NCBI GenBank assembly: GCA_964017235.1
Contig: OZ024930.1
Location: 152,644,221 to 152,708,220 of the forward strand
Reading direction: 5' to 3'
DNA: 64,000 nucleotides
Source: Sabellastarte sp. h YS-2021
Taxonomy: Eukaryota; Annelida; Polychaeta; Sabellida; Sabellidae
Shown: one piece after another, positions 10,371 to 56,400 of the stretch
Position numbering within the stretch: position 1 is the first letter of the stretch
Layout of the letters: every line of letters begins with the position of its first letter
The notes under the pieces: generated by a model
The model's database searches: none
What the model was told of the DNA's origin: nothing
The model's input: only the letters and a program-made list of their open reading frames with translations
Program-made: the position numbers and the translations under genes

Positions 10371-12354
10371 TTACCCCACAGCCCTTAATGGCTGTTGGGG
10401 TATTGTTTTCACCCATGGTGTCCGGATGGTGGGGCGGGCGGGTGGGTGGGGCGGGCGGCGGGAAATAGTTTGTCCGGGCTGTATCTCAGAAACCGTAAGG
10501 TGTAGGAAGTTGATACTTGGTAGGGACATTGGTTAGGGGGTGTAGCTGTGCAACGTCATGGTCTGACCTTGATTTGACCTTTGACCTTGCCGTAGTGACC
10601 TTGAGTTTGAAAATCTTGTCCGGGCTATATCTCGGAAACTGTAAGGTGTAGGAAGTTGATACTTGAAGGGACATTGGTTAGGGGGTGTAGTTGTGCAATG
10701 TCATAGTCTGACCTTGATTTGACCTTGCCGTAGTGACCTTGACCTATAAAATCTTGTCCGGGCTATATCTCCGAAACCGTAAGGTGTAGGAAGTTGATAC
10801 TTGGTAGGGATATTGGTTAGTGGGTGTAGTTGTGCAATGTCATAGTCTGACCTTGATTTGATCTTGCCGTAGTGACCTTGACCTATAAAATCTTGTCCGG
10901 GCTATATCTCGGAAACCGTAAGGTGTAGGAAGTTGATACTTGGTAGGGATATTGGTTAGGGGGTGTAGGTGTGCAACGTCATGGTCTGACCTTGATTTGA
11001 CCTTGCCGTAGTGACCTTGACCTATAAAATGTTGTCCGGGCTATATCTCGGAAACTGTAAGGCTTGGGAAGTTGATATTTGGTAGGGACATTGGTTAGGG
11101 GGTGTAGGTGTGCAACGTCATGGTGTGACCTTGACCTATAAAATGTTGTCCGGGCTATATCTCAGAAACCGTAAGGTGTAGGAAGTTGATACGTGGTACG
11201 GATATTGGTTAGGGGGTGTAGGTGTGCAACGTCATGGTGTGACCTTGATTTGACCTGTGACCTTGCCGTAGTGGCCTTGACCTATAAAATCTTGTCCAGG
11301 CTATATCTCAGAAACCGTAAGGTGTAGGAAGTTGATACTTGGTAGGGATATTGCTTAGGGGGTGTAGGTGTGCAGCGTCATGGTCTGACCTTGATTTGAC
11401 CTTGCCGTAGTGACCTTGACCTATAAATTGTTGTCTGGACTATATCTCAGAAACCGTAAGGTGTAGGAAGTTGATACTTGGTAGGGATATTGATTAGGGG
11501 GTATAGGTGTGCAACGTCATGGTCTGACCTTGATTTGACCTTTAACCTTGCTGTAGTGACCTTGACCTATAAAATATTGTCCGGGCTTTATCTCGGAAAC
11601 TGTTAGGTGCAGGAAGTTGATATTTGGTAGAGACATTGGCTAGGGGGTGTAGGTGTGCAGCATCATGGTGTGACCTTGATTTGACCTTTGACCTTGCCAT
11701 AGTGACCTTGACCTATAAAATCGTCAGGGCTGTATCTCTGAAACCGTAAGGTGTAGGAAGTTAATACTTGGTAGGGACATTGGTTATTGGCTATAGGTGT
11801 GTATTATCATGGTGTGACCTTAATTTGACCTTTTACCTTGCCGTAGTGACCTTGACCTTTAAAATCTTGTTGCACCTTTGGGTCTGTCTTTTGATGCAGA
11901 TTAAGCAAAAGTCATATTAGAATTTATTAAGAATTTTACTTTCATAACTTCCCATTGTAAGAGATAGAATTTCATCAAGTGAGCCGCAGATTTTACTCCA
12001 ACACCACACATAAGCATTCATTAAATGTATTACCACTTCTGTATGCATGGTAATATTCAAACCATCTAAACCATAATTCGGAAATGCAGATGTATATAAA
12101 GAGTGTTGAATTTTAGTTTACTGATTAATGCTGTCATCTTGTCATTGAATTATCTTGTTTTAATACTTCGTCTTTATACGCATTATCTTTCTTTTAAACA
12201 TTATTTCTCCATTTAAACATTGTTTGGACCTTTATATAACTGACAGTGCTCTGAAAGTATCCTGAAGTTTGTACTGGTACAGTACTTCTATATCTCATTG
12301 TGTTGAAAATATTTCCCAAGGCTGTGGGGTACGGGCATCTCTGATGCTATTTTT
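10371..12354 (+). mobile_element. Satellite-bearing element A1 (Helitron-like)
   Basis: The 5' end TTACCCCACAGCCC forms a hairpin with GGCTGTTGGGGTA (to about 10402). A GGGCGGGCGGG-rich spacer follows. Then about ten tandem monomers of 136-146 bp (about 10465-11870) each contain TATCTCGGAAACCGTAAGG, GTAGGAAGTTGATACTTGG and GACCTTGATTTGACC. A unique 3' part (11870-12318) is followed by the subterminal inverted copy GGCTGTGGGGTA (12320-12331), a GCATC-TCT-GATGC stem-loop (12335-12347) and a T5 end. There is no open reading frame. Copies A2, A3 and A4 start near 40373, 29562 and 31628. The 5-T junction matches the interrupted B monomer on both sides. Confidence 0.85.
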
Positions 12355-12720
12355 GATAATCTTTATCATGGCAAATTTTTGGAGCTATAGCTCCATATCT
12401 ATCTGAGTAATAGCTACTTTGACATTTTACCAATGAGTAAATCACTTTTAACTTCAATCGATTGAATGAAGAGGTTTTAGTGAAATAAGTTGTTCACATA
12501 CTTTTTGATGATCTGACAGATCTGTGTCATGACAATTTTTTGGAGCTGTAGCTCCGTAGCTAACTAAGTAATAGCTGCTTGAGATTTGGCCTAGGAGTAA
12601 ATTACTTGTAACTTCAATACAACTGATTATAAAGTTTTCTTTTTCTGTGAAATAAGTTGTTCACCCACTTTTTTGATGATCTGTGTCACGGCAAATTTTC
12701 AGAGCTGTAGCTCGTACCCC
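12355..12720. repeat. Satellite B monomers, right of element A1
   Basis: Three monomers with GGAGCT(A/G)TAGCTCC, CTGAGTAATAGCT, GAGTAAATCACTT and GTTGTTCA(C/G) resume the array broken by A1. The array stops near 12715, where unrelated sequence begins. Confidence 0.75.
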
Positions 12721-14159: not shown

Positions 14160-14604
14160 ACAGTGTTTTTATACCAGGTAGTAATCGGAAAGCTTACATT
14201 TATCAGTCCCCCCCCCCCCCCCAATGGGTCGAACTGGGGTCGTAAAGCCGCAGATTTTGTTTGAAGTTATTTGATAAAAATTGGGTATCCGCAATACTTT
14301 TAGAGATAATTAGCATTTACTCATTTTGAGTAGGTGAATAATTAGCTACGGGTCTGAAACTTCAAGTGAAAGCTCTCCCAAAAGTAAGTGAATGGGTTAT
14401 TTGAAAAAAATTGGCTATCTGCAACACTTTTAGAGATAATTTGCATTTACTCATTTTGAGTAAGTGAGTAATTAGCTATGGGTCTGAAACTTGCCATCTG
14501 AAAGCTCTTCCAAAAGTAGGTGAATGAGTTATTTGAGAAAAATTGGCTATCTGCAATACATTTAAGAGATAATTCACATTTACTCATTTTGAGTAGGTCA
14601 GTAA
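14160..14604. repeat. Satellite F array, left part
   Basis: Tandem monomers of about 127-136 bp carry GGTCTGAAACTTC, GAAAGCTCT(T/C)CCAAAAGTAGG, TTGGCTATCTGCAATAC and TTTACTCATTTTGAGTAGG. A pure C run of about 17 at 14206-14222 precedes ATGGGTCGAACTGGGGTC, a phrase also found in a different array near 21310 and 21455. The array is split by element G at 14605-16250. Confidence 0.85.
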
Positions 14605-15412
14605 TTATATCCCCAGACGAAAGTCGGGGATATATTGGATTCAGGTCCATCGCGCCGCCGCCATAGAAATTTCCTTGTGTACGCGATAACTCAAAAACGG
14701 ATTAATATTTTTTTTTCAAACTTGGTACACATGTTAAGGATGCCCAAAGGAAGATCCCTATTTTAAGGTGACCTTAAACTCCCAATAATAAAGAACTTAT
14801 GGCCACCTTAAGGTCAGAAATTGCACTTTTGGCCACTTAGAGCCCTCTAGGTCACAAACTATGAGGCTTATCTGCCTCAAATTTTTACCTGAGAACACAT
14901 TAATATATTCTTAGTACATGTGCCGAAAATCAAGACTTTAAGTTGAGGAGAAAATTGTCTTTGAGGCCCATAAAGACCCCACTTAGGACTTTTTTCCTAT
15001 ATTTTTAACTTATTTTGCCCTATAATTTGGAAGTGGTAATTCTGATGAGTCACAAACTGCACTAGATGTAACTCTTATATGTAATCCTTGTCTGTGAAAA
15101 ATTTAAAGGCTGTAGGTTTACCTGTTAGGCCGACTTAAGATCTCAAAATTGCCCACAGAGACCCAATTTATGGACTTTTTGCCATCTTCAAGCACTGTAG
15201 CTTTCAAACTATGTCTCTCATCTAAGTGAAATAACATCTGAGAATATATCAATATGTTTTTCTTGTATGTACTCCAAAATTTAGGCCTTTAATAGACATT
15301 CCTTATTTATATATTTGATTTTATTTTAGTGATAAGATTAACTGAGCTTTTTGTATTTGATTACCCCTTTTATATTATAAGTGTTTGTTTACCATTTGTG
15401 CTGCAGCACTCC

Positions 15413-15580
15413 ATCTCTTTGTAGTCCCACCCCCCATCCCCCACCCACCTCTGGGACCTCCAGCTATTGAGTGACACTAAATAAACAAAGGTATACAGAT
15501 CTTCTGTAATAGTGAGAGAGGTGTGGAGAAGGGGAGAGAGGTGGGGTGGGTGTGGGAGGTGGTGTTTGCTTCGTTATCTA
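15413..15580. repeat. Purine/pyrimidine strand-asymmetric inverted tracts
   Basis: Within element G, a C-rich tract (CCCACCCCCCATCCCCCACC, about 15425-15450) and a downstream G-rich tract (GGTGGGGTGGGTGTGGGAGG, about 15540-15562) are roughly complementary. The G tract has four or more G-runs and could form a quadruplex. No coding content. Confidence 0.55.
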
Positions 15581-15734
15581 ATTATCTAAGACAAAGGGAG
15601 TCACAACTGAAATTGTGTCACATATTTAGGTTGCATATATATGGACCACATATATAGGAATTGAGGAAATGAATAACTGAAAAACAATGCAAATTCTAAA
15701 AATAATATAATAAAATAATAATATAAATAATATA

Positions 15735-16062
15735 TGATTTTTAAATAATATTTTATTTGTGAACAAATATAGAAACAGAGATACGCTTTTGGAATTATGA
15801 ATTTAGAATTGACATTCAATCATCAATCATTTAAATACTTTGAAAATAGGTTCAGAGTTACCCTTTGCAGGAAGATTGAAAAGTATGATGAGTTGAGTTA
15901 AAAATAATATTTTATTTGTCAACAAATATAGAAACAGATATGCTCTTTTGAGATTATTAATTTAGAATGGACATTCAATCATCAATCATTTAAATACTTT
16001 GAAAATAGGTTCAGAGTTATCATTGCAGGAAGATTGAAAATATGATCTGTTGAGTTATGTAT
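15735..16062. repeat. Two-unit tandem repeat in element G
   Basis: A unit of about 162 bp with AATAATATTTTATTTGT, ACATTCAATCATCAATCATT and AAATACTTTGAAAATAGGTT occurs twice in tandem, nearly identical. The second copy starts near 15900. Confidence 0.75.
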
Positions 16063-16250
16063 TCGACGTCTGGGGATACACCATCTTCCTTGGGAAGATA
16101 TAAACTTAGTAGATTAATGTGCTGAAGTTCATATAACTTTTCCCAATATTTATGGCATACAACAATTAAATAAAAAATTCCCGATCAAAACCTGTGGCGT
16201 GAGTGATGACCTGTCTGGGGATATGTTGGCGCCGAGTTGGCCCAATCTAG

Positions 16251-17710
16251 TTATCTATGGCTCTGAAACTTCACCATGTGAAAGCTCTTCCAAAAGTAGG
16301 TCAGTGAGTCATTTGAGAAAAATTGGCTATCTGCAATACTTTTAAGAGATAATGTGCATTTACTCATTTTGAGTAGGTGAATAATTAGCTACGGGTCTGA
16401 AACTTCACCAAGTGAAAGCTCTCCCAAAAGTAGGTGAATGAGTTATTCGAGAAAAATTGGTTATCTGCAATACTTTTAGAGATAATTCGCATTTACTCAT
16501 TTTGAGTGGGTGAGTAATTAGCTATGGGTCTGAAACTTCATCTGAAAGCTCTTCCAAAAGTAGGTGAATGAGTTATTTGAGAAAAATTGGCTCTCTGCAA
16601 TACTTTTAAGAGATAATTCGCATTTACTCATTTTGAATAGGTGAATAATTAGCTACGGGTCTGAAACTTCACCAAGTGAAAGCTCTCCCAAAAGTAGGTG
16701 AATGAGATATTTGAGAAAAATTGGCTATCTGCAATACTTTTAGAGATAATTCGCATTTACTCATTTTGAGTAGGTGAGTAGTTAGCCATGGGTCTGAAAC
16801 TTCACCATCTGAAAGCTCTTCCAAAAGTAGGTGAATGAGTTATTTGAGAATGGCTATCTGCAATACTTTTAAGAGATAATTCGCATTTACTCATTTTGAG
16901 TAGGTAATTATCTACGGGTATGAAACTTCACCATGTGAAAGCTCTCCCAAGGGGAGATGAATGAGTTATTTGATAAAAATTGGGTATCCGCAATACTTTT
17001 ACAGATAATTAGCATTTTCTGATTTTGCTCTTATGGTTTGTGAGATATTTGTGATTTTTCACATTTTCACTAAAAGTAGCAATAAAGTAGCCATTAGTGT
17101 AGACTGAGCAACAGTTGTGAAACCTCAATAGGTTACAGTTCACAAAAAAGTAGATGAAGATCACATTTGAGAGAAATTGTGTAGCTGCAATACTTTTGAA
17201 GATATAAGCAATTTACTCATTATGGTTATCATTAAAAATTGACAAAGTAGCTATTACTCACTTAGCTATGGAGATACAGTTCCAAACTACTGACCATGTT
17301 GTAGCTGTGGAGAAAGTAGCTGAACAACATATTGCAACAAAATACTCTAAATGCAATAGTTTGAGAGTTATAAGCCATATAATTATATTAGGTAAAGTGT
17401 GATTACTCACTCAAAAGTAGGCCAAAGTACACCAATCCCCTTAGCATAGGACATTGTTGTAGCACCTAGTGGGTCAAAAATTCGCTCGAAATTGCTCTAT
17501 CTCTTACGGTTTGCGAGATATTTGTGATTTTTCACATTTTCACTAAAAGTAGCAATAAAGTAGCCATTACTCACTTGTGCATTAAGCAACAGTTGTGAAA
17601 CTTCAATATGTTACAGTTCACAAAAAAATAGATGAACAACATATTTGAGAGAAATTGTGTAGCTGCAATACTTTTGAAGATATAAGCCATTTACTCATTA
17701 TAGTTATCAT
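16251..17710. repeat. Satellite F array, right part
   Basis: The F array resumes with about six monomers of 127-136 bp up to about 17030. It then passes into longer, related units containing TTTGTGATTTTTCACATTTT, ACTAAAAGTAGCAATAAAGT and TTTTGAAGATATAAGC, repeated at about 17030-17240 and 17510-17700. It is interrupted at 17711 by element C1. Confidence 0.8.
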
Positions 17711-20337
17711 TGTATCCACTGGATGCTATCTGGTGGGTACTATGGATTTGACTTCATTCCACCGCCGCCGCAGTGTGTAGAGAGATTTCACCGTTACCGC
17801 TCTAACTAAAAAAATATTATAGCTATCCTTCTCAAATTTGCAGGATATATTCATAACCATAAAATCTTGCCTGGGAATATTTTCGGCCTCATTTTGAAAA
17901 ACAAGATTGCTGCCACGGGCGTTTTTCGACTTTAAACATGGACTTTTGGTGGCCCTGTAGAGCAAAGGGTGTTATAGGTAGAGATCTCAAATTTGCAGGA
18001 TATGTTCCTCATTATAAAATCTTGATGGGAATATTTTTGGCCTCATTTTGAAAAACAAGATGGCCACCACAGGCGTTTCTTTGCAGTCATGAAACGTGCT
18101 TATATCTCCCTTATTATTGGTCCTAGAGGTTTGGGATGGTAAACCAACCTATAGGAAATCATGGCCTGGGAATCTTTTTGTGTGGTCAGATTTGACTTTG
18201 GACCCCTCCTTCAAGGTCAAATGAGGATAGCCAAATCTCAAAGTGCTTATAACTTGCTTATTATTGGTCCTAGAGGTTTGGGATGGTAAAACCAACATAT
18301 AGGAAATCATGGGCTGGGAATCTTTTTGTGTGGTCGGATTTGACCTTGGACCCCTCCTTCAAGGTCAAATGAGGATAGCCAAATCTAAAAGTGCTTATAA
18401 CTCGCTTATTATTGGTCGTAGAGGTTTGGGATGGTAAACCAACATATAGGAAATCATGGCCTGGAAATCTTTTCGTGTGGTCAGATTTGACCTTGGACCC
18501 CTCCTTCATGGTCAAACGAGAATAGCCAAACCTAAAAGTTTTTATAACTCGCTTATTATTGGTCCTAGAGGTTTGGGATGGTAAACCAACATGTAGGAAA
18601 TCATGGGCTGGGAGTCTTTTGGTGTGGTCGGATTTGACCTTGGACCCCTCCTTCAAGGTTAAATGAGGATAGCCAAATCTAAAAGTGCTTATAACTCGCT
18701 TATTATTGGTCCTAGAGGTTTGGGATGGTAAACCAACATATAGGAAATCATGGCCTGGAAATCTTTTCGTGTGGTCAGATTTGACCTTGGACCCCTCCTT
18801 CATGGTCAAACGAGGATAGCCAAACCTAAAAGTTCTTATAACTCGCTTATTATTGGTCCTAGAGGTTTGGGATGGTAAACCAACATACAGGAAATCATTG
18901 GCTGGGAATCTATTGCTGTGGTCGGATTTGACCTTGGACCCCTCCTTCAAGGTCAATCAGGACAGCCCAACTTAAAAGTGCTTATAACTCGCTTATTATT
19001 GGTCCTAGAGGTTTGGGATGGTAAACCAACATATAGGAAATCATGTGTGGTCAGGTATGACCTTGGATCCCTCCTTCAAGGTCAAACGAGCATAGCCAAA
19101 CTTAAAAGTGCTTATAACCTTCTTATTGTTGGTCGTAGAGGTTTGGGATGGTAAACCAACCTATAGGAAATCATGGGCTGGGAGTCTTTTCGTGTGATCA
19201 GATTTGACCTTGGACCCCTCCTTCAAGGTCAAACGAGGATAGCCAAACCTAAAAGTGCTTATAACTCGCTTATTATTGGTCCCAGAGGTTTGGGATGGTA
19301 AACCAACATACAGGAAATCATGGGCTGGGAATCTTTTGGTGTGATCGGATTTGACCTTGGACCCCTCCTTCAAGGTCAAACGAGGATAGCCAAACTTAAA
19401 AGTGCTTATAACTCACTTATTATCGGTCATAGAGGTTTAGGATGGTAAACCAACCTATAGGAAATCATGGGCTGGGAATCTTTTGGTGTGATCGGATTTG
19501 ACCTTGGACCCCTCCTTCAAGGTCAAACGAGGATAGCCAAACTTAAAAGTGCTTATAACTCACTTATTATTGGTCGTAGAGGTTTAGGATGGTAAACCAA
19601 CCTATAGGAAATCATGGGCTGGGAGTTTTTTGTTGTGATCGGATTTGACCTTGGACTCCTCCTTCAAGGTTAAATGAGGATAGCCAAACTTAAAAGTGCT
19701 TATAACTCGCTTATTATTGGTCCTAGAGGTTTGGGATGGTAAACCAACATACAGGAAATCATGGGCTGAGAATCTTTTGGTGTGGTTGGATTTGACCTTG
19801 GACCCCTTCTTCAAGGTCAAACGAGTATAGCCCAACTTATATGTGCTGATATCGCGCTTATTATCGGTCCTAGAGGCATGGGATGGTAAACCAACCTATA
19901 GGAAATCATGGGCTGAGAGTCTTTTGGTGTGGTCGGATTTGACCTTTGACCCCTCCTTCAACGTCATACAAGGATAGCCAAACTTAAAAGTGCCTATAAC
20001 TTGCTTATTATTGATCCTAGAGGTTTGCAATGTGAAACGAACTTATAGGAAATCATGGACTCGGAATCTTCTGATGTGGTCAGATTTGAGCTTCAGCCCC
20101 CTCCTTCAAGGTCAAATGAGGATAGCCAAACTTAAAAGGGTTTATAACTCGTTTATTATTGATCCTAGAGGTTTGCAATGTGAAACCAACTTGCAGGATA
20201 TTGTGGGCTGGGAATCTTCTGATGTCAGATTTGACCTTTGGCCCCTCCTTCAAGGTCAAACAATGGTTTACTGGCTTTGGTGAGTTGTCTTTCCGGTGGA
20301 TACAGATTTGCATCAGTTCTCTGATGCATAGGTCTAG
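17711..20337 (+). mobile_element. Satellite-bearing element C1 (Helitron-like)
   Basis: The 5' end TTGTATCCACTGGA pairs with TCTGGTGGGTA as a hairpin (about 17713-17739), followed by a CCACCGCCGCCGC spacer. Two longer units with AAATTTGCAGGATAT and CATAAAATCTTG lead into about 14 monomers of about 147 bp (18100-20275) with TATAACTCGCTTATTATTGG, TCCTAGAGGTTTGGGATGG and TTTGACCTTGGACCCCTCC. The 3' end has the subterminal inverted motif CCGGTGGATA (20293-20302), a perfect 8-bp stem-loop (TGCATCAG-TTCT-CTGATGCA, 20309-20328) and CTAG (20334-20337) followed by T. Because 147 is a multiple of 3, the array creates long spurious frames such as the minus-strand one at 18270-18956. No real gene is present. 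Confidence 0.85.
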
Positions 20338-20440
20338 TTTTATTCTGTTTCTGTTTATTCTTTTTTTTCAATTCCTTGACAGTCCATCACAAAAAATTAC
20401 TTTGAGGGAATTTCACCAAGAAGTAGCTTTTAACCAATAT

Positions 20441-27761: not shown

Positions 27762-28960
27762 GTGTTTTTGGCTTTTATCTCCTTTACCATTGGTTTTCAC
27801 ATACACACACCAGATTTCACCATTACCACTCTAACGAAAAAAAAAACACATTATAGCTAGACTTCTCAAATTTGAAGGATATATTTATAACCATAAAATC
27901 TTGCCTGGGAATATTTTTGGCCGCATTTTGAAAAGCACGATGACCACCACGGGCATTTCTATGTCAGCCCTGAAAAATGCTTATAACTCGCTTACTATTG
28001 GTCCTAGAGGTTTGCAATGTGAAACTAACCTATAGGAAATCATAAGGTAGGAATCTTCTGATGTGGTCAATTCATTTATTATTGGTCCTAGAGGTTTGGG
28101 ATGGTAAACCAACACATAGGAAATCATGGACTGGAAATCTTCTGGTGTGGTCGCATTTGACCTTGGGCCACTTCTTCAAGGTCAAATGAGGATAGCCAAA
28201 CTTATAACTCGTTTATTATTGGTCCTAGATGTTTGGGATGGTAAACCAACACATAGGAAATTATGGGCTGGGAATCTTTTGGTGGGGTCGAATTTGACCT
28301 TGGGCCCTCCTTCAAGATCAAACGAATATAGCCAAACTTAAAAGTGCTTATAACTCACTTATTATTGGTCCTAGATGTTTGGGATGGGAAACCAACCTAT
28401 GGGAAATCATGGGCTGGGAATCTTCTGGTGCAGTCAGATTTGACCTTTGGCCCCTCTTCAAGGTCAAACAAATATAGACAAACTTAAAAGTGCTTATAAC
28501 TCGCTTATTATTGGTCCTAGATGTTTGGGATGGTAAACCAACACATAGTAAATAATGGGCTGGGAATCTTTTGGTGTGGTCAGATTTGACCTTGGGCCCT
28601 CCTTCAAGGTCAAATGAATATAGCCAAACTTAAAAGTGCTTATAACTTGCTTATTATTGGTCCTAGAGTTTTGCAGTGTGAAACCAACTTTTAGGAAATC
28701 ATGGGCTGGGACTCTTCTGATGTAGTCATATTTGACCTTGGACCCTCCTTCAAGGTCAAACGAGGATAGCCAAGCTTAAAAGTGCCTATAACTCACTTAT
28801 TATTGGTCCTAGATGTTTGCAATGTGACACCAACTTACAGGAAATCATGGGCTGGGAATCTTCTGATGTGATCAGATTTGACCTTGGGCCCCACCTTCAA
28901 AGTCAAACAAGGATAGCCAAACTTAAAAGTGCTTATAACTCACTTATTGTTTTAGGTATG
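27762..28960 (+). mobile_element. Element C2, satellite C array, 5' part disrupted
   Basis: 27800-27965 matches the 5' units of element C1 (GATTTCACC, CATAAAATCTTGCCTGGGAA). About seven monomers of the C satellite with GCTTATAACTC, TTATTATTGGTCCTAGA and TCCTTCAAGGTCAAA follow. The DIRS insertion lies at its left edge, so the 5' hairpin is absent here. At about 28950 the array changes abruptly into an A-type monomer, and no C-type 3' end (CTAG stem-loop) is found. Confidence 0.75.
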
Positions 28961-29115: not shown

Positions 29116-29561
29116 TGTGTTTCTTGCGGAATCATGCAATAATTCACCTACAAACACAGATTTTCTTGGAGTCTGTGATGAAATTATAAGGCAATGCGAA
29201 ATGCATTTTGAATAATGCTTGTTGACAGTGTGGTTTTTGAATAATGCTTGTTGACAGTGGTTTCGTGATCACGAAAGAACTCAAATATATTGTGTGATCC
29301 AGGCAGTATTTAACTATATTACACCTAAAAATATAAACTGAAGCATAGTCTGGATGGTTTCTTCCAAAATGGAGGCAAGTAAAAGGACACTGAAAGTTGT
29401 CTGGATTTTAACAACAATGGGCCAAAGCCGGTGCTGATGCTACAGCCATCCACCTGTAAACATCAAATATGATGATTAAAAATTCCATTATTAGGATTTT
29501 ATTGGTCAGACTATCAAATTTTGTACAAAAGTATTTTTAAGTATACCAGTAATCTCTATTT

Positions 29562-30813
29562 TTATCCATAAGGGCTGTCAAGGTTTTGTTTTCACCCATG
29601 GTGTACGGATTGGCGGTCGGGTGTTTTGGCGGGGAAAAGTCTGTCCAGCCTGCATCTCAGAAACCGTAAGGTGTAGGAAGTTGATACATGGTAGGGACAT
29701 TGGTCAGAGGCTTGTAGATGTGTAATGTCATGGCGTGACCTTGATTTGACCTTGCTGTAGTGACCTTGACCTTTTAAATCTTGTTCAGGCTATATCTCTG
29801 AAACTGTAAGAGTGCAACCTTTATTTGACCTTTGGAATGTCATGGTCTGACCTTGATTTGACCTTGCTGTAGTGACCTTGACCTATAAAATTTTGTCTGG
29901 GCTATATCTCGGAAACTGTAAGGTGTAGCAAGTTGATATTTGGTAGGGACATTGGTTAGGGGGTGTAGTTGTGCATTGTCATGGTGTGACCTTGATTTGA
30001 CCTTTGACTTTGCCGTAGTGACCTTGGCCTATAAAATCTCGTCCGGACTATATCTCGGAAACTGTAAGGTGTAGGAAGTTGATACCTGGTAGGGATATTG
30101 GTTTGGGGGTGTAGGTGTGCAACGTCATGGTCTGACCTTGATTTGTGCTTTGACGTTGCCATAGTGACCTTGACCTATAAAATCTTGTCTGGGCTATATC
30201 TCGGAAACTGTAAGGTGTAGGAAGTTGATACTTGGTAGGGATATTGGTTAGGGGCTATGGGTGTGTATTATCATGGTGTGACCTTAATTTGACCTTGTCG
30301 TAGTCACCTTGACCTTTAAAATCTTGTTGCACCTTTGGGTCTGTCTTTTGATGCAGATTAAACAGTGTTAATTCATAGAATTTATTAAGAATTTTACTTC
30401 CATAACTTCCCATTGTAAGAGATAGAATTTCATCAAGTGAGTCACAGATTTTGCTCCAACACCAAACATAAGGATTCATTAAATGTATTACCACTTCTGT
30501 ATGCATGGTAATATTTAAAACATCTAAACCATAATTCGGATATGCAGATGTAGATAAAAAGTGTTGAACTTTAGTTTACTGATTAATGCTGTCATCTTTT
30601 TATTTAATTATCATGTTTTAATACTTCATTTTTACATGCATTTCTTTCTTTTAAACATTATTTTCTCCATATAAACATTGTTTGGAACTTTATATAACTG
30701 ACAGTGCTCTAAAAGTATCCTAAACTTTGTACTGGTACAGTACTTCTATATCTCATGGTGTTGAAAATATTTCCCTAGGCTGTGGGGTACGGGCATCTCT
30801 GATGCTATTTTTT
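29562..30813 (+). mobile_element. Satellite-bearing element A3
   Basis: The 5' end is degenerate (TCCATAAGGGCTGTCAAGG for the usual hairpin) but is followed by GTTTTCACCCATGGTGTACGG and about five A monomers. The unique 3' part (30320-30780) parallels 11870-12318 of A1. The 3' end GGCTGTGGGGTACGGGCATC, with GATGC and a T6 run, is intact. It is more diverged from A1 than A2 is. Non-coding. Confidence 0.8.
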
Positions 30814-31627
30814 CTCAAAGTTCTTCAAATTACTGAACAATTAGAGAGCATCCTTTAGATGAATCCTTTATATTACATCAAAGTGACTACATTGATCTGC
30901 ATTCCTTTACATGGACGTATTACTAAACCCTAATATAGCAAACGCTTCCACTTGAAACATAACGTATCTCTTAAGGGAATTTTTTAACATTATGTGACTT
31001 TTAAACCATGTACTAAACCTCTCTATTGTACTTGTATCTTGAACTTTGTACAAAGCTCTCGCCGGATCATATGATGATTGAGTGGTTGATGGAAAGTATT
31101 TATTTCCTCTGTGATTACAGCTATTCCAGGTGTTGTTTTGTGTGTTATTGTTTCAGAGCATACTGTATAATAATTTCCACTTTTAACAAATTTTATAGCG
31201 TAAAATTACAGTACCTATATACCTGTCATTCACAGTTCATTGCATGTGCAGGCCCTTTCGTTTGACATTCCTGGGGTTTTGGATCCTGGTTTCAGTGTTT
31301 CGGGTTCATATCTGAACCTAGGTTCTCCACTTTGTAGCCTTCCTTACGTTCAATTCTGGAGGTTAGTGGTCAGTGACTCATGGTGTTGACTCGATCCTCC
31401 CCTAAGGATTCCCATCTTACTGTTGCCCGTATCCTTCATAACACTTCATGGTTTTTTGGTATATTGGTTTCTCAGGCTAGTTTTCCTCAAATTAGCCCCA
31501 TGACCTTTTGTGTCCCTGAAGAGCAGCCAGTAATCAGACTGGAATGTATGTGCTGGGATCACCTTCTCAAGAATTTTTTTATTCATAACCTCTTTTTTAT
31601 CAATTGAATCGGGCTGATTTTTTTCTA
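30814..31627. other. Intergenic sequence, no supported feature
   Basis: No domain-bearing frame, tandem array or known repeat is recognised. Two short open frames (31026-31265, 31380-31607) look like chance. Confidence 0.4.
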
Positions 31628-40372: not shown

Positions 40373-42256
40373 TTACCCCACAGCCCTTAATGGCTGTTGG
40401 GGTATTGTTTTCACCCATGGTGTCCGGATGGGCGGGCGGGCGGGCGGGTGGGGGGGCGGCGCTAAATAGTTTGTCCGGGCTGTATCTCAGAAACAGTAAG
40501 GTGTAGGAAGTTGATACTTGGTAGGGACATTGGTTAGGGGGTGTAGCTGTGCAATGTCATGGTCTGACCTTGATTTGACCTTTGACCTTGCCGTAGTGAC
40601 CTTGAGTTTGAAAATCTTGTCCGGGCTATATCTCGGAAACTGTAAGGTGTAAGAAGTTGATACTTGGTAGGGACATTGGTTAGGGGGTGTAGTTGTGCAA
40701 CGTCATAGTCTGACCTTGATTTGACCTTTGACCTTGCCGTAGTGACCTTGACCTATAAAATCTTGTCCGGGCTATATCTCGGAAACCATAAGGTGTAGGA
40801 AGTTGATACTTGGTAGGGATATTGGTTAGGGGGTGTAGGTGTGCAACATCATGGTCTGACCTTGATTTGACCTTGCCGTAGTGACCTTGACCTATAAAAT
40901 GTTGTCCGGGCTATATCTCGGAAACTGTAAGGCTTGGGAAGTTGATATTTGGTAGGGACATTGGCTAGGGGGTGTAGGTGTGCAACGTCATGGTGTGACC
41001 TTGATTTGACCTTGCCGTATTGACCTTGACCTATAAAATGTTGTCCGGGCTATATCTCAGAAACCGTAAGGTGTAGGAAGTTGATACATGGTACGGATAT
41101 TGGTTAGGGGGTGTAGGTGTGCAACGTCATGGTGTGACCTTGATTTGACCTGTGACCTTGCCGTGGTGGCCTTGACCTATAAAATCTTGTCCAGGCTATA
41201 TCTCAGAAACTGTAAGGTGTGGGAAGTTGATACTTGGTAGGGATATTGCTTAGGGGGTGTAGGTGTGCAGCGTCATGGTCTGACCTTGATTTGACCTTTG
41301 ACCTTGCCGTAGTGACCTTGACCTATAAAATGTTGTCTGGGCTATATCTCAGAAACCGTAAGGTGTAGGAAGTTGATACTTGGTAGGGATATTGATTAGG
41401 GGGTGTAGGTGTGCAACGTCATGGTCTGACCTTGATTTGACCTTTAACCTTGCTGTAGTGACCTTGACCTATAAAATATTGTCCGGGCTTTATCTCGGAA
41501 ACTGTTAGGTGCAGGAAGTTGATATTTGGTAGAGACATTGGCTAGGGGGTGTAGGTGTGCAGCATCATGGTGTGACCTTGATTTGACCTTTGACCTTGCC
41601 ATAGTGACCTTGACCTATAAAATCGTCAGGGCTGTATCTCGGAAACCGTAAGGTGTAGGAAGTTGATACTTGGTAGGGACATTGGTTATTGGCTATAGGA
41701 GTGTATTATCATGGTGTGACCTAAATTTGACCTTTTACCTTGCCGTAGTGACCTTGACCTTTAAAATCTTGTTGCACCTTTGGGTCTGTCTTTTGATGCA
41801 GATTAAGCAAAAGTCATATTAGAATTTATTAAGAATTTTACTTTCATAACTTCCCATTGTAAGAGATAGAATTTCATCAAGTGAGCCGCAGATTTTACTC
41901 CAACACCACACATAAGCATTCATTAAATGTATTACCACTTCTGTATGCATGGTAATATTCAAACCATCTAAACCATAATTCGGAAATGCAGATGTATATA
42001 AAGAGTGTTGAATTTTAGTTTACTGATTAATGCTGTCATCTTGTCATTGAATTATCTTGTTTTAATACTTCATCTTTATACGCATTATCTTTCTTTTAAA
42101 CATTATTTCTCCATTTAAACATTGTTTGGACCTTTATATAACTGACAGTGCTCTGAAAGTATCCTGAAGTTTGTACTGGTACAGTACTTCTATATCTCAT
42201 GGTGTTGAAAATATTTCCCAAGGCTGTGGGGTACGGGCATCTCTGATGCTATTTTT
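40373..42256 (+). mobile_element. Satellite-bearing element A2
   Basis: It is the same as A1 from TTACCCCACAGCCC to GATGCTATTTTT, including the hairpin, GGGCGGGCGGG spacer, about ten A monomers and unique 3' part. Long runs are identical to A1 by eye (for example the last 480 bases), and the monomer order corresponds with a few small insertions such as CTTTGACC. This suggests recent spread. It is inserted in a C'-type array. Confidence 0.88.
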
Positions 42257-42945: not shown

Positions 42946-42954
42946 TAGCGGAGG

Positions 42955-43093: not shown

Positions 43094-43094
43094 C

Positions 43095-47400: not shown

Positions 47401-50400
47401 TTAACCACTTCTCTTTGTGCAATTATTTCATTAATACAGTTATTATGTTAAAATAGTCCCCTTTGCAGTAAGTTAACATATTGCTTTATTTTCAGTGAGA
47501 GTACACATTTTATCTGTTTATAGAATCACCCTGACCTCGTTTCAAAATCCAGCAAGCACAGTAACTACAGATCCATTTGGGTGGTCACTGAAGAATATTC
47601 AGGCTAGTCTGCATGGAAACTGGAAGTACAGGAACCATGGCTGGTATGACCGTCTTTTAAAATGTAGTTGTAGCAATTATCAAGGCATCATTGGCTGAGT
47701 GGTTAACAGTTTTGGCAATTGATCAGTGGGGTCTTGCTTCTGAGGTCATGTGTTTGTATCCTGTTCATGGTAACATGTAGGATTCACTGTGTGCCTGTCT
47801 TGATGTGACATTAGTTGGTCAAAGAATTTTAAACCCCAGCTATTGCCTTGCATGGTTGGATGAAGGTCACATGTATGTTTGTCAAAACTTATGGTTTGTC
47901 AGGATGTAAGAATTGTGGCAACATTTTAACTGAATGTATAGCTTGCAGAATGTTTAAAGTTAATGAAAGCAAAATGACATTGTAATAGGCTTAAGACAAA
48001 GAACTATGATTTAAAACTGTGTGATTATACAGATGAAGAAGCTATGGCTGTACTAATTATAGTGTATTCTTTTCTATTTGTTAGCATCAGCTTCATTTTT
48101 AGTTAAGGTTTCATTGGTGTGAATTATATCCTGGAGATATATTGGCTTTGATCCGTTACTTCTGCCATGGATTTGCTTACAAATGTGACAACTCAAAAGT
48201 AGTTTGACCTGCAGCTTTCCAATTTGGTATATATAAGAAGGGGGGGGAAAGAAGCATGTTTCTTAGAAGCCTTGACCATTAATTTTAAGGTCAATGGTTA
48301 CCTTGAAAAGGTCAGGTTCGCACTTTGAAAGGGTCAGCCTTGAAAAAGTCAGGTTCACACTTTTGCTTGATCCTTGTATACTATAGCTTGTATCATGTTT
48401 TCCGCAATGTGTATGGTAAACATATATCTGTGATACACCTGCTTTTAGATGTTCATCTGACCTTTGACCTTTCCTTCAAGGCTAAACTCTCCCTTATTTT
48501 TGGGCTCCAAGGGTCTGGAATGATAACAGAAAATTGATAGGAAGTCATGGGCTGTGAATCTTTTTGGGGGATATGGTTGCATCTGTGACCCTTGTTTAAT
48601 GTCTAAGAAGGTCTTTATACCATAAAGGCCTATATTTTCATTTTTATTAGTCCTTAGGTTTTAGAATGTGAAAACAACCTGTCAAAAAATCATAGACTGT
48701 GTATCTTTTAAGAGGGTCATATTTGATCTTTAATCCCTGCTTCAGGGTCAAATAGCATGGACTTACTATAAATACCTTATAACATCCAAATTATTAAATT
48801 TGAAACAAGAGACAGTAAATCGTACCTGTGCCACTTTTCAGGCTGAGATGTACCTCACTTAGTGGAATATTATTTTTGCTTTTTCCGCCGTCCGGCGTCC
48901 CACTTGGTTTCCAGACATTTTAGGCAACAGTTCTTATCCTATCTTTACCAAATTTGGCATGCAGGTTTATTGGGTTAATAGCTTGTATGGGATTGCTTTT
49001 GGCGATGATAGCTCTATAGCTAACTGAGTAATAGCTACTTTGCTACTTTTGAGTAGCTCTTTGGTTTCCAGACATTTTAAGGAATGTTATTAAGCCTAGC
49101 TTTCTGAAATTTGGTATGGAGGTTCATTGGGTAAATAGCTTGTATGTAATTGCTTTTGGGGGGAGTTGCTTCATAGATGAGTGTGTAATTATGTCCACCC
49201 CCCTGGGGGATGGATATATTATTTTTGCTTTTTCTGCCATCCGGCGTCCGATGTCCGGCGTCACGCATGGTTTCCGCTCATTTAAAGGAAAAGTATTAGA
49301 GCTATTGTCACCAAATTTGGTATGCAGGCTTATTGGGTCAGTAGCTTGCATGGGATTGCTTTTGGCTGTTGTACCTCTTTTGCTTACCGAGTAATACTTA
49401 AGTACAGCTATTCTCAGTACCCATTGGTTTCCGTGCATTTAAGCCAAAATAATTAAAGATATTTTACTACAATTTTGAATACAAGATTGTTATGTCCATA
49501 GCTCGCTTGGTATTGCATTTGGGACTGATAGCTTTGTCAGTACATGAGTAATAGCCATTTAGGTACTTCATTGTGTATTTTCAGTACTACTTTTGAGTAA
49601 TTTGCTAATATCTCAGAAACCGTAAGAGATAGAGCGATTTCGACAGAATTTTTGACCCACAGGGTAGTAGAAAAGTATTCTATACAAAATTGAAAAAATT
49701 CAATTTTCGCCACTTTTGGCGGCCATCTTGAATTTTTGCGAAAAACGAAAAAAAATCTGAATATCTCGGTAACCGTAAGAGATAGAGCGATTTGGACAGA
49801 ATTTTTGACCCATAGGGTAGTAGGAAAGTATTCTATACAAAATTGAAAAAATTTCAATTTTCGCCACTTTTGGCGGCCATCTTGAATTTTTGCGGAAAAA
49901 CAAAAAAATGTTAATATCTTGGAAACCGTAAGAGATAGAGCGATTTCGACAGAATTTTTGACTCGCATGGTAGTGGTAGAGTATTCTATGTGCAATTGAA
50001 AAATTTCAATTTTCGCCTCTTTTAGCGGCCATCTTGGATTTTTGCGGAAAACTGAAAATGTTAATATCTCGGAAACCGCAAGAGACAGAGCGATTTCGAC
50101 AGAATTTTTTACCCGTAGGGTTGTAGCAGAGTATTCTATGTGAAATTGAAAAAATTCAATTTTCGCCACTTTTGGCGGCCATCTTGAATTTTTGCGAAAA
50201 ACAAAAAATCTTAATATCTCAGAAACCGTAAGAGATAGAGCGATTTCGACAGAATTTTTGACCCATAGGGTAGTAGCAAAGTATTCTATACAAAATTGAA
50301 AAATTTCAATTTTCACCACTTTTGGCGGCCATCTTGAATTTTTGCGGAAAAACAAAAAATGTTAATATCTTGGAAACCGTAAGAGATAGAGCGATTTCGA

Positions 50401-53400
50401 CAGAATTTTTGACCCATAGGGTAGTAGAAAAGTATTCTATACAAAATTGAAAAATTTCAATTTTCGCCACTTTTGGCGGCCATCTTGAATTTTTGCGAAA
50501 AACCAAAAAAATCTGAATATCTCGGAAACCGTAAGAGATAGAGCGATTTGGACAGAATTTTTGACCCGTAGGGTAGTAGGAAAGTATTCTATACAAAATT
50601 GAAAAATTTCAATTTTCGCCACTTTTGGCGGCCATCTTGAATTTTTGCGGAAAAACAAAAAAATCTTAATATCTCGGAAACCGGAATCGGACAGAATTTT
50701 TAACCCATATGGTAGTAGAGGAGTATTCTATGTGAATTTGAAACATTTCAATTTTCGCCACTTTTGGCAGTCATCTTGTTTCGTAGAAATTTTCAACCCT
50801 CAGGGTATCTAATCAATGTACTATTGGCAATTTTCAAAATATTTTACACTCCCCAAAAATGGCGGCCATTTTGAATTTTTCAGTTTTTGCCTAAAATGAA
50901 AAAACGCAAGTTTGCTTCTGTCTCCTTAACCGTGCGAGATAGAGCGATTTCAATGAACCCACAGGGTATCTGACCAGTGTACCCTTGGCAGTTTCAAAAA
51001 ATATTCCTCTTCCCACATATGGCAGCCATTTTGAATTTGAATTGGAAATTCGCTTCTATCTCCTTAACCATGCAAGATAGAGCGATTTCGTCAAAATTTT
51101 CTACCCAACCAATGCAAAAAGGCATGAAGCTGAAATAATTTACATGTATACTAATAAATATTTAAGCATCATTGATATATTTTACAGATGAAACAGGGCC
51201 TTGTAAGATTACTGTACAATTTTTGTAAAAGGTTGATAGGGTGGACATTACACATGATAATGTGTGTTCTTCTATGCTATTCTGTTTCTATTCATATGTT
51301 GCAGCTACAAGCAACAGGGCGTCCTATTTCTAGTTAATTAAATAAATGAGTAATTAGCTATTTTGAAAAAGGCAAATGTGCTCATATCTCCTAAACCGTG
51401 CGAGATAGAGCGATTTCGTCGAAATTTTCGACCCACAGGGTATCTAAGGAATGTACTCTTTGCAATTTTCAAAAAATTTTCCCCTCCCCAAAAATGGCGG
51501 CCATTTTGAATTTTCGAATTTTTGCCAAAAATGGCAAAACACAAATTTGCTTCTATCTCCTTAACCGTGCGAGATAGAGCGATTTCGTCGAAATTTTCAA
51601 CCCACAGGGTGTCTAAGGGATGTAATCTTTGCAATTTTCAAAAAATTTTCCCCTCCCCAAAAATGGCGGCCATTTTGAATTTTCGAATTTTTGCCAAAAA
51701 TGGCAAACAACAAATTTGCTTCTATCTCCTTAACCGTGCGAGATAGAGCGATTTCGTCGAAATTTTCGACCCACAGGGTGTCTAAGGGATGTAACCTTGC
51801 AATTTTCAAAAAATTTTCCCCTCCCCAAAAATGGCGGCCATTTTGAATTTTCGAATTTTTGCCAAAAATGGCAAAACACAAATTTGCTTCTATCTCCTTA
51901 ACCGTGCGAGATAGAGCGATTTCGTCGAAATTTTCGACCCACAGAGTATCTAAGGAATGTACTCTTTGCAATTTTCAAAAAATTTTCCCCTCCCCAAAAA
52001 TGGCGGCCATTTTGAATTTTCGAATTTTTGCCAAAAATGGCAAAACACAAATTTGCTTCTATCTCCTTAACCGTGCGAGATAGAGCGATTTCGTCGAAAT
52101 TTTCAACACACAGGGTGTCTAAGGGATGTAATCTTTGCAATTTTCAAAAAATTTTCCCCTCCCCAAAAATGGCGGCCATTTTGAATTTTCGAATTTTTGC
52201 CAAAAATGGCAAACAACAAATTTGCTTCTATCTCCTTAACCGTGCGAGATAGAGCGATTTCGTCGAAATGTTCGACCCACAGGGTATCTAAGGAATGTAC
52301 TCTTTGCAATTTTCAAAAATTTTTCCCCTCCCCAAAAATGGCGGCCATTTTGAATTTTCGAATTTTTGCCAAAAATGGCAAAACACAAATTTGCTTCTAT
52401 CTCCTTAACCGTGCGAGATAGAGCGATTTCGTCGAAATTTTCAACCCACAGGGTGTCTAAGGGATGTAATCTTTGCAATTTTCAAAAAATTTTCCCCTCC
52501 CCAAAAATGGCGGCCATTTTGAATTTTCGAATTTTTGCCAAAAATGGCAAACAACAAATTTGCTTCTATCTCCTTAACCGTGCGAGATAGAGCGATTTCG
52601 TCGAAATGTTCGACCCACAGGGTATCTAAGGAATGTACTCTTTGCAATTTTCAAAAATTTTTCCCCTCCCCAAAAATGGTGGCCATTTTGAATTTTCGAA
52701 TTTTTGCCAAAAATGGCAAAACACAAATTTGCTTCTATCTCCTTAACCGTGCGAGATAGAGCGATTTCGTCGAAATTTTCGACCCACAGGGTGTCTAAGG
52801 GATGTAACCTTGCAATTTTCAAAAAATTTTCCCCTCCCCAAAAATGGCGGCCATTTTGAATTTTCGAATTTTTGCCAAAAATGGCAAAACACAAATTTGC
52901 TTCTATCTCCTTAACCGTGCGAGATAGAGCGATTTCGTCGAAATTTTCGACCCACAGAGTATCTAAGGAATGTACTCTTTGCAATTTTCAAAAATTTTTC
53001 CCCTCCCCAAAAATGGCGGCCATTTTGAATTTTCGAATTTTTGCCAAAAATGGCAAAACACAAATTTGCTTCTATCTCCTTAACCGTGCGAGATAGAGCG
53101 ATTTCGTCGAAATTTTCGACCCACAGGGTGTCTAAGGGATGTAACCTTGCAATTTTCAAAAAATTTTCCCCTCCCCAAAAATGGCGGCCATTTTGAATTT
53201 TCGAATTTTTGCCAAAAATGGCAAAACACAAATTTGCTTCTATCTCCTTAACCGTGCGAGATAGAGCGATTTCGTCGAAATTTTCGACCCACAGAGTATC
53301 TAAGGAATGTACTCTTTGCAATTTTCAAAAAATTTTCCCCTCCCCAAAAATGGCGGCCATTTTGAATTTTCGAATTTTTGCCAAAAATGGCAAAACACAA

Positions 53401-56400
53401 ATTTGCTTCTATCTCCTTAACCGTGCGAGATAGAGCGATTTCGTCGAAATTTTCAACACACAGGGTGTCTAAGGGATGTAATCTTTGCAATTTTCAAAAA
53501 ATTTTCCCCTCCCCAAAAATGGCGGCCATTTTGAATTTTCGAATTTTTGCCAAAAATGGCAAACAACAAATTTGCTTCTATCTCCTTAACCGTGCGAGAT
53601 AGAGCGATTTCGTCGAAATGTTCGACCCACAGGGTATCTAAGGAATGTACTCTTTGCAATTTTCAAAAATTTTTCCCCTCCCCAAAAATGGCGGCCATTT
53701 TGAATTTTCGAATTTTTGCCAAAAATGGCAAACAACAAATTTGCTTCTATCTCCTTAACCGTGCGAGATAGAGCGATTTCGTCGAAATTTTCGACCCACA
53801 GGGTGTCTAAGGGATGTAACCTTGCAATTTTCAAAAAATTTTCCCTTCCCCAAAAATGGCGGCCATTTTGAATTTTCGAATTTTTGCCAAAAATGGCAAA
53901 ACACAAATTTGCTTCTATCTCCTTAACCGTGCGAGATAGAGCGATTTCGTCGAAATTTTCGACCCACAGAGTATCTAAGGAATGTACTCTTTGCAATTTT
54001 CAAAAAATTTTCCCCTCCCCAAAAATGGCGGCCATTTTGAATTTTCGAATTTTTGCCAAAAATGGCAAACAACAAATTTGCTTCTATCTCCTTAACCGTG
54101 CGAGATAGAGCGATTTCGTCGAAATTTTCGACCCGCAGGGTATCTAAGGAATGTACTCTTTGCAATTTTCAAAAATTTTTCCCCTCCCCAAAAATGGCGG
54201 CCATTTTGAATTTTCGAATTTTTGCCAAAAATGGCAAACAACAAATTTGCTTCTATCTCCTTAACCGTGCGAGATAGAGCGATTTCGTCGAAATTTTCGA
54301 CCCACAGGGTGTCTAAGGGATGTACTCTTTGCAATTTTCAAAAAATTTTCCCCTCCCCAAAAATGGCGGCCATTTTGAATTTTCGAATTTTTGCCAAAAA
54401 TGGCAAAACACAAATTTGCTTCTATCTCCTTAACCGTGCGAGATAGAGCGATTTCGTCGAAAATTTCAACCATTTTGATTTTTCGAATTTTTGCCAAAAA
54501 TAGAAAAACAGGAATTTACTTCTATCTTCTTAACCGTCAAGATTTTCGACCCAACCAATGCAAAAAGGCATGAAGCTGAAATAATTTACATCTACACTAA
54601 TAAATATTTAAGCATCATTGATATATTTTACAAATGAAACAGGGTCTTGTAAGACTACTGTACAATTTTGGCAAAAGGTTCATGGGGTGGACATTACACA
54701 TGATAATGTGTGTTCTTCTATGCTATCCTGTTTCTATTCGCATCTACTATCAATAGGGCGTCCTATTTCTAGTTGTCTTTGTATTGGGCTGCATTTTTCT
54801 CATCCTTAATTATGCTAAATCAAGTTGAATGTCCAGTTCAAATTTGAAAATCATTGCACCTTGCCATTTGTTTGTATCCAATAAACAAGACAATGCATCG
54901 AAAATACAACTTTCTGATCTTAAAAAATTGAAGATGCCATCTTATATGTACTCTCGTCGCATACAAATAAAGTAGAAATTTAAAGAAATAACTATGTATT
55001 TTCAGGGTACATGTCAGTGATAGTGGGTCATTTGATGTTCAGTTATCTGGTTGGGCCATTGGTGTCACAGTTATTGTAGGTTAGTTGATAACATGCCCAT
55101 TTTTTTGTGGGAATGAGTGTTCTTTTTAAAAATTTATAAATTTTATGAATCTTATGAGGTGAAGCAGTGAAGCCCAATGAGAGAAGAGAAGGCAAATATC
55201 TCACACTAATCAAAAGAAAGTCAACTGTATAAAGAATGCATTCTCTGTTCAAAGTACCGTATTTTTCCAAAATATGGCCCGGGCGTTAATTATTTTCAAA
55301 TGGTTATCAGACCAGGCGTTAAATTGAACCAGGCGTTCTTTTGAAGTATAAAAACAGTGTCATAAATTGTAAACAGTGTGCTTGGTACCCAGGCGTTAAT
55401 TTGAACCAGGCGTTTATTTGAACCTGGGCGTTATTTTGGAAATTTACGGTACCATTGTTTCCATCCTGATAAATTAGACATTTTGACATTCTCACTCTTC
55501 AGGGTTACACCTTTCTGTCCACATTCCAATGAGTTTAGTAAATAACTTAGATTTTATGTAAATTGGATTGAAATTCTTGCTGAAATGAAGCATTTCTCTG
55601 TAGATGACATTTTATGTTATTAATATACATTTAGAGTGTTTGAGAAGTTAACAAGTTTGGCATTAAATCACATGACTCTCATCTATGTGGTTATGAGTTT
55701 AAATCCATCTTGTTTCAACAACCAGGGATTTAGCTAGACATGTCCTACTTTGACCCTAGCTGTTGAAAGTGACATAAAACCCTAACTGTGGTCATTTTAT
55801 GTTTGTTTGAAACAGGTGTAAATAAACAACACCGCCCTACTGTTAGTGCAAACAAATGTAACTGCTATGCGGGAAGTACAAAGGTGAAATTTCATGGAGG
55901 AGCTTCGTGGCTTTATAACTTGTTTTCTAGCAAGATTGAAGACGTTCTGAAGAGGCAGCTGCAGGGAAAGGTAAACAAGCAGCAAAATATTTATTGTTAA
56001 ACCCTATTCTAATGGGATTTTGACAAGTAGAATCTTTTTTCTGAACACTATTATTATAATTATATATCTGAGATTTAAAATGCACAAATAAAATTTCAGT
56101 TTTAGATAAGCACAGGGTCATCTCAGTTTGAGAGCTTACAGCTTCAATGTTCTTGTGACCTTACAGAAAAAGATTTGGGGTTAATATAGAAGGATCTTTT
56201 TTGTAGTTGTGTGATGCAGTCAAGAAAGTGATAAATGAAAATGGAAATGCTCAACTAGCAACTATGAAAGGTACCTACTAAATTTTGTTTGATTATCTGT
56301 ACATATTGGGATGGTGGGGTTCTGTTTAGATTAGAGAAAGTTTATAAAATAGAAAAGACATTTGAGTGTATAATAGTAAAAAAAATAATAAATTTCTGAG

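What the first reader, a model, noticed from the sequence alone, without database searches (positions are those of the whole stretch)
10371..54772. Four unrelated-looking satellite elements share one transposon-like plan ending in stem-loop and CTAG
Families A (10371-12354, 40373-42256), G (14605-16250), C (17711-20337) and D (49189-51333 and outer 48848-54772) have different monomers. Yet each has a 5' end TT(A/G)(TR)(T/C)CC... inside a terminal hairpin and a CG-rich spacer. Each then has an internal array (G has only a two-unit one), an inverted copy of the 5' motif 25-95 bases before the 3' end, and a short stem-loop. C, G and D end in CTAG followed by T; A ends GATGCTATTTTT. Terminal versus subterminal inverted motifs plus a 3' stem-loop are the known plan of non-autonomous Helitron/Helentron elements (HINE, DINE-1). 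The consistent TT start instead of TC, and the systematic load of satellite DNA, make this worth defining as a superfamily.
Basis: partly seen in the sequence, partly recalled or inferred. Interest (0 to 1): 0.85.

Follow-up and report, generated by a model that had tools for sequence, protein, structure and literature searches.

The report
Satellite-carrying rolling-circle transposons in a bivalve-like genome
The repeat arrays in this stretch of what looks like a clam genome ride inside short, gene-less rolling-circle transposons of a broadly known kind (Helitron2/Helentron), which seem to be an important way such arrays spread here.

Summary
The observation largely holds. Families A, G, C and inner D have matched termini: a 5' arm that folds into a hairpin, an inverted copy 23-85 bp before the 3' end, and sharp ends. 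The "outer D" 5' end fails. G sits in a satellite whose empty site is restored exactly. Fetched copies elsewhere share the ends. A scan built on the plan found a fifth family (H), whose 5' end is also in the window at 58724.

Interpretation: non-autonomous rolling-circle elements of the published Helitron2/Helentron (HINE, pearl) group; not a new superfamily. There are two terminus classes. A sits in T-runs, like HINEs. C, G, D and H run TT...CTAG and insert at A|TT (usually AA|TT), mixing Helitron and Helentron features; an oomycete "proto-Helentron" and some oyster elements already show such mixtures.

Array types are not family-specific: H carries both a D-type satellite and the satellite into which G is inserted. 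In 244 kb sampled, 42.7 of 47.1 kb of 90-500-bp arrays match arrays inside seven verified elements.

RepHel genes exist in this genome (24 Rep matches, 17 with a helicase match nearby), but no link to these termini could be tested.

The parts
10371..12354 (+). Family A copy 1 (T-run type); arrays within 10470-11870, ~139-146 bp monomer
40373..42256 (+). Family A copy 2, inserted in a C-like ~144-bp satellite (S2); array 40471-41772
29558..30812 (+). Family A copy 3; 3' end intact, 5' hairpin decayed
31617..32213 (+). Family A copy 4, decayed remnant
14605..16250 (+). Family G element TTATATCCCC...CTAG inserted in the 133-bp satellite S1; two 166-bp units inside (15735-15900, 15894-16057)
16066..16112 (+). 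Second, internal copy of the G 3' inverted repeat followed by a stem-loop (possible older 3' end)
17710..20337 (+). Family C element TTGTATCC...CTAG; array 18092-20261, 147-bp monomer
49189..51333 (+). Family D element (inner) TTATGTCC...CTAG; array 49606-50778, ~150-bp monomer
51373..54772 (+). Outer D remainder: 169-bp array 51373-54471 and a real D-type 3' end at 54772; no valid 5' end found
58724..58771 (+). 5' end of a fifth family (H), followed by D-like sequence and an S3-type satellite (about 59247-59880); 3' end not found
14265..17027 (-). 133-bp satellite S1 (14265-14607 and 16251-17027) into which G is inserted; the same satellite is the second internal array of family H
27812..28948 (+). 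C-like left segment and array without recognised ends

Best explanation
These are short non-autonomous rolling-circle transposons of the Helitron2/Helentron group that carry satellite arrays as internal cargo. Shown: fixed termini, a 5' arm that can fold into its own hairpin or pair with a 3' asymmetric inverted repeat, a (mostly weak) 3' stem-loop, CTAG (C, G, D, H) or T-run (A) 3' ends, A|TT or T-run target, no target-site duplication longer than the ambiguous TT, similar copies at unlinked places. Inferred: a RepHel protein from an autonomous relative nicks at the 5' TT, replicates the strand through the arrays, and ends after the 3' stem-loop; pairing of the 5' arm with the 3' repeat, computed to be stronger than its own hairpin in A, C, D and G, may set the end point. 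Arrays are replicated along and appear to be exchanged between families with different ends.
For: Termini and controls. G empty site: joined flanks align across the junction at 87-91% to 7 satellite places; none has a gap at the AA|TT junction, one has a 4-base gap two bases to its left; in 2 of the 7 the matched site lies within the flanks used. Copies besides the window's own: A 39 at 96-98% over at least query 1-328 of 330 (40 scored of 3632 candidates); 21 copies distinct by flank with both ends, from 28 loci (strict end patterns, 7 loci gave none, most because the locus stops before the 3' end). G 5' end 39 at 98-99% (40 of 1811), G 3' end 39 at 96% (40 of 837), D 5' part 39 at 98-99% (40 of 786). 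Structural scan with the plan: 4 elements plus 6 rows starting inside the C array in 164 kb, mean 0.7 rows in 40 shuffles; new family H at two unlinked loci. Flanks of C/G/D/H copies: A before the element in 14 of 15, AA in 11 of 15; TT after it in 13 of 13. 5' arm pairs better with the 3' repeat than with its hairpin arm in 7 of 9 elements, slightly worse in the 2 H copies (A1/A2 and G/L036 have the same ends and are not independent). Array blocks of 300 bp or more: 20 of 32 have at least one recognised end in the right orientation, 11 both; leaving out the 7 blocks of the reference elements, 13 of 25 and 5 (4 if both ends must be one family), reached by 0-3 of 1000 rotations. RepHel: 24 PF14214 matches, 17 with a PIF1 match within 7 kb downstream on the same strand, one pair in a single 2245-aa frame (pairing mine).
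Against: No autonomous element with these termini was seen. The 3' stem-loops are not exceptional except in C. TT could be a 2-bp duplication rather than element sequence. Outer D has no valid 5' end. 12 of 32 array blocks, 12 of 25 without the references, showed no recognised end. Two stricter structural scans did not pick out G, C and D. Genome-wide C copies and a large flank count are missing.
Confidence: 0.86

Rival explanations
1. Cut-and-paste miniature elements (MITE-like) that duplicate TTA or TT at insertion.
For: Five elements (G in the window and L036, inner D, H in L040 and L046) have TTA at the element start and TTA after it; the first pearl elements were published as MITEs (stated in PMC7492417).
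Against: C and the L045 G relative start TTG but are followed by TTT and TTA; of 13 right flanks 6 are TTT and 1 TTG. The third base pairs inside the hairpin (A-T in G, G-C in C and L045), so it belongs to the element. Inverted repeats are asymmetric and the CTAG end has no partner at the 5' end.
Confidence: 0.06
2. Canonical Helitron1 elements (5'-TC ... CTRR-3', A|T).
For: CTAG end, A before and T after the element, 3' stem-loop in C, G, D.
Against: Element start is TT in 13 of 15 5' ends, TC in one; a 5' hairpin and an asymmetric inverted repeat are present, which Helitron1 lacks by definition (PMC3627910, passages).
Confidence: 0.05
3. Ordinary satellite arrays with chance or hitch-hiking ends; no transposition.
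For: 12 of 32 array blocks have no recognised end; arrays can also spread by unequal exchange.
Against: Sharp ends in unrelated flanks, exact empty site, rotation and shuffle controls.
Confidence: 0.02

Closest known systems
Cg_HINE elements of Crassostrea gigas (PMC7492417, read in parts 1-4 of 7)
   Same: Subterminal inverted repeat, 5' IR, short simple-sequence spacer, satellite-like array of mostly 140-180 bp monomers, 3' inverted repeat and palindrome, T-rich target, no TSD; families with unrelated modules; some with two arrays
   Different: Cg_HINEs prefer TT in T-rich sites; here C, G, D, H end in CTAG at A|TT. Related arrays appear here in families with different ends (H and D).
Helitron2 (Bao and Jurka 2013, PMC3627910, passages)
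   Same: 8-15 bp asymmetric inverted repeats, 5' hairpin, 3' repeat upstream of a hairpin, T start
   Different: 3' repeat described about 20-30 bp from the end, here also 50 (H) and 84 (D); described algal target is after TTTT; satellites are not part of the definition
proto-Helentron-Pi of Phytophthora (PMC4067079, section 11)
   Same: 5' TT, 3' CTAG, insertion between A and T, no TSD
   Different: Autonomous, ~14 kb, oomycete
CTAG-ending oyster elements with subTIRs (PMC7992393, passages)
   Same: CTAG, mostly A|T, subTIR in 257 of 751, 5' IR in a third of those; authors suggest Helitron-Helentron intermediates
   Different: Reported with TC start; only one had a microsatellite; no satellite arrays reported in the passages seen
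Pearl elements, DTC84, MgE of bivalves (as described in PMC7492417; originals not seen)
   Same: Short satellite-like arrays as the core of HINE-like elements
   Different: Sequence not compared here

Membership tests
Helitron2 group (incl. Helentron/HINE) | Asymmetric inverted repeats of 8-15 bp, 5' one at the terminus | tested here: met
   A 12, G 12, C 9 exact (12/13), D 10, H 9
Helitron2 group (incl. Helentron/HINE) | 5' terminal hairpin involving the repeat | tested here: met
   A, G, C, inner D, H; not for outer D
Helitron2 group (incl. Helentron/HINE) | 3' repeat upstream of a 3' hairpin, ~20-30 bp from the end | tested here: inconclusive
   A, G, C 22-32 bp; H 50-51, D 84 bp; stem-loops weak by energy except C (H 3' end not folded)
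Helitron2 group (incl. Helentron/HINE) | RepHel of the Helitron2 clade in an autonomous partner | not testable with these tools
Helentron/HINE in the strict sense | Insertion in T-rich site, at least TT at both ends | tested here: met
   Family A only: 21 of 21 copies have T5 (17) or T2 (4) on the left and T4-T8 on the right
Helentron/HINE in the strict sense | T-run rather than CTAG end, for families C, G, D, H | tested here: not met
   They end CTAG in 11 of 13 3' ends, at A|TT
Helitron1 | 5'-TC start and no 5' hairpin | tested here: not met
   TT start in 13 of 15, TC in 1; hairpin present
Helitron1 | CTRR-3' end, insertion between A and T, no TSD | tested here: met
   C, G, D, H by flanks; empty site for G only, where TT stays ambiguous
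TIR/MITE (e.g. PIF/Harbinger) | Terminal inverted repeats at both ends with fixed TSD | tested here: not met
   Repeats asymmetric; TTA not constant

The most novel reading that the evidence does not exclude
A Helitron/Helentron hybrid lineage (5'-TTR hairpin ... CTAG-3', palindromic AA|TT target) is the dominant source of this genome's dispersed satellite DNA, with satellite arrays behaving as modular cargo that moves between families of unrelated ends.
Probability: 0.4. Interest if true: 0.6.

Novelty: new variant of a known kind. Interest (0 to 1): 0.42.

Why it matters
Published annotation of the hard clam, which this genome resembles in size, counts satellites (10.4-10.7%) and rolling-circle elements (4.1-4.8%) apart (PMC8905726, passages). 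Here about nine tenths of sampled array DNA is of monomer types carried inside five rolling-circle families, so the two classes may overlap widely. It also gives a defined set of young, end-matched families for testing how Helitron-type and Helentron-type termini are related and how satellites spread along chromosomes.

Tried and rejected
Three exact-pattern scans of IMG/VR (the G and A hairpins and the motif shared by A and D) gave no match. A first structural scan of the window found A1 and A2 but not G, C or D, plus 16 rows from the outer-D array; shuffles gave 1.15 rows on average (60 shuffles). A second found none of the elements: 6 rows inside the C array, one at 138619-145660 of the 164-kb piece, one in L040; shuffles 1.3 (20 shuffles). 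Bulged hairpins, short repeats or imperfect stems were the likely cause; the scan with a folding-energy cut-off replaced them and was thus the third try. Rfam: no match in the window at gathering cut-offs. Pfam on 10 window frames: reverse transcriptase, integrase, F-box/LRR, weak Ulp1; no Rep or helicase. A 3-bp TTA duplication was considered and rejected. The outer-D element as drawn was rejected. A DNA search for C copies and a pattern count of the G 3' end did not complete, so the genome-wide C copy number and a large flank count are missing. In one search I left out L001 (same DNA as the window) and 4 rows in which the other hairpin arm matched on the opposite strand.
Full report
WHAT WAS CHECKED. 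The window is G000:C4:152644221-152708220 of a 1.786-Gb genome in 647 contigs. The species is not given. The size is close to that implied for the hard clam YKG assembly (190,956,718 bp of satellites = 10.68%, so about 1.788 Gb; PMC8905726, passages), so a hard clam is likely; this is inference.

TERMINI. A, G, C and inner D each start TT(A/G) followed by an arm that folds back, and carry an inverted copy of that arm 23, 26, 33 and 85 bp before the 3' end. Random pairs of places at the same spacing match as well in 1, 3, 24 and 33 of 3000 draws. The 5' hairpins are matched by 0, 0, 2.1 and 1.8% of 660 window tiles; the 3' stem-loops are not exceptional apart from C (0.9%; G 6%, inner D 9%, A 10%, outer D 24%). 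Outer D, A copy 3 and A copy 4 have no valid 5' repeat (2818, 2796 and 2809 of 3000 null pairs as good).

EMPTY SITE AND TARGET. G lies inside the 133-bp satellite S1. Its joined flanks align at 87-91% to 7 satellite places; none shows a gap at the AA|TT junction, one has a 4-base gap two bases to its left, and in 2 of the 7 the matched site lies within the flanks used. The site GTAA|TTATCTATGG is restored with the element read as TTATATCC...CTAG. For family A copy 1, both sides carry T-runs and paralogous sites in the window carry one run. In 21 A copies distinct by flank the left run is exactly 5 T (17) or 2 T (4), the right run 4-8 T, and the base before the left run is a purine in 21 of 21 (the window copy A1, not among them, has C). 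For C, G, D and H copies in the loci fetched and the window: 15 5' ends, preceded by A in 14 and AA in 11 (TAA in 9); 13 3' ends, followed by TT in 13 (TTA 6, TTT 6, TTG 1); element starts TT in 13 of 15; ends CTAG in 11 of 13 (L001 and 4 opposite-arm rows left out; L033, a C 5' match with a decayed end, appears only). Helitron1 is described as inserting between A and T, Helentrons in TT (PMC5148889, passages).

COPIES. Besides the window's own: A 39 copies at 96-98% (40 scored of 3632 candidates); G 5' end 39 at 98-99% (40 of 1811); G 3' end 39 at 96% (40 of 837); D 39 at 98-99% (40 of 786). Only the best candidates are scored, so these are lower bounds and the best-matching part. C genome-wide did not complete. 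The high identity suggests recent spread (inference).

A PREDICTED FAMILY. A scan for A|TT start, 9-base asymmetric repeat, stable 5' hairpin and CTAG|T found, in the 164-kb contiguous piece, G, C, inner D, a 3258-bp G in L036, and 6 rows that start inside the C array; 40 shuffles of that piece gave 0.7 rows on average. In the other 36 loci, for which no shuffles were run, it found 4 rows: a new family H in L040 and L046 (different contigs), a diverged G relative in L045, and one A copy with a chance CTAG (L024). It was the third version of the scan; the first two missed these elements. H also has a 5' end in the window at 58724 and in L035, and a 3' end in L044.

ARRAYS. The L036 G copy carries a 351-bp array of 3.8 units, so G is a satellite carrier too and the window copy is a short version. 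H carries two arrays in a row: one 78% like the outer-D satellite, one 91% like S1, the satellite in which G sits. A and D monomers share an 18-base motif (0 of 200 shuffles score as high), and the C monomer is homologous to the S2 array around A copy 2. So arrays and ends do not go together one to one. In 244 kb (window, 100 kb upstream, eight 10-kb stretches elsewhere) arrays of period 90-500 make 47,133 bp; 42,692 bp match arrays inside seven structurally verified elements; leaving out every locus that holds one of the seven, 20,005 of 22,569 bp (sum mine). A match of monomer type does not by itself place an array inside an element. Of array blocks of 300 bp or more, 20 of 32 have at least one recognised end in the right orientation within 1 kb and 11 have both; rotation means 5.67 and 1.03, 0 of 1000 as high. 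Seven of the blocks belong to elements from which ends or arrays were taken as reference; without them it is 13 of 25 with an end and 5 with both (0 of 1000 rotations as high), or 4 with both from one family (3 of 1000; 1 of 1000 for any end). 12 blocks had no recognised end.

MECHANISM. Computed pairing of the 5' arm is stronger with the 3' repeat than with its own hairpin arm in 7 of 9 elements (A, C, D, G), and slightly weaker in the two H copies. In A, D and G the hairpin is bulged while the 5'-3' pairing is continuous. Between G and its L045 relative, two positions change together in both ends (A to G on the 5' arm, T to C in the 3' repeat), one of them bulged in the hairpin. This fits the published suggestion that 5'-3' pairing ends replication (PMC3627910, passages); it is inference. 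RepHel genes are in the genome: 24 Rep matches, all over cut-off, with a PIF1 match within 7 kb downstream in 17 of 24; in one case a single frame of 2245 aa holds both. No Rep or helicase was found in the 10 window frames scanned. Whether any RepHel locus has these ends is untested.

NOVELTY. The plan, the satellite cargo and the CTAG/TT mixture are each in print. I found no paper on satellite arrays in CTAG-ended families of this plan in bivalves; that rests on searches of open-licence papers, and on passages, not whole papers.

Noticed in passing
window 16066-16112: G has a second internal copy of its 3' inverted repeat plus stem-loop, as if an older 3' end had been read through to a new one.
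   Followed up: partly
L028 (G000 C7:583559-587559): Two family A copies in tandem with a 2141-bp period and about 104 bp between them, with the same flanks; one search lists three A copies in this region spaced 4128 bp. Local tandem duplication or a rolling-circle product.
   Followed up: partly
window 14265-17711 (minus strand): Order of S1 array and D-like sequence looks like a decayed family H element on the minus strand that received G in its array and C at its 5' side; no H ends found there.
   Followed up: partly
G000, PIF1 matches: 10 of the 65 listed PIF1 matches sit in frames of exactly 823 aa and none of these is near a listed Rep match: perhaps a repeated helicase-coding family of its own.
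   Followed up: no
164-kb piece 39628-41017 (L032-L033): An array block flanked by a G-like 3' end and a C-type 5' end in one orientation: possible chimeric element.
   Followed up: no
window 7291-8556 (+): 422-aa frame with F-box and leucine-rich repeats (FBXL14-like by recall), a probable host gene.
   Followed up: partly
window 601-1242 (+), 33748-34473 (+), 5350-6195 (-), 60053-60934 (-): Integrase and reverse transcriptase matches over Pfam cut-off: remnants of retroelements.
   Followed up: partly
window 42962-43096 and 36071-36211: Repeated segment (82%) next to the A2 host satellite that looks SINE-like by eye.
   Followed up: no
L002, L009-L028, 5' flanks of family A: The base before the left T-run is a purine in 21 of 21 copies, which may reflect an endonuclease preference.
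   Followed up: partly
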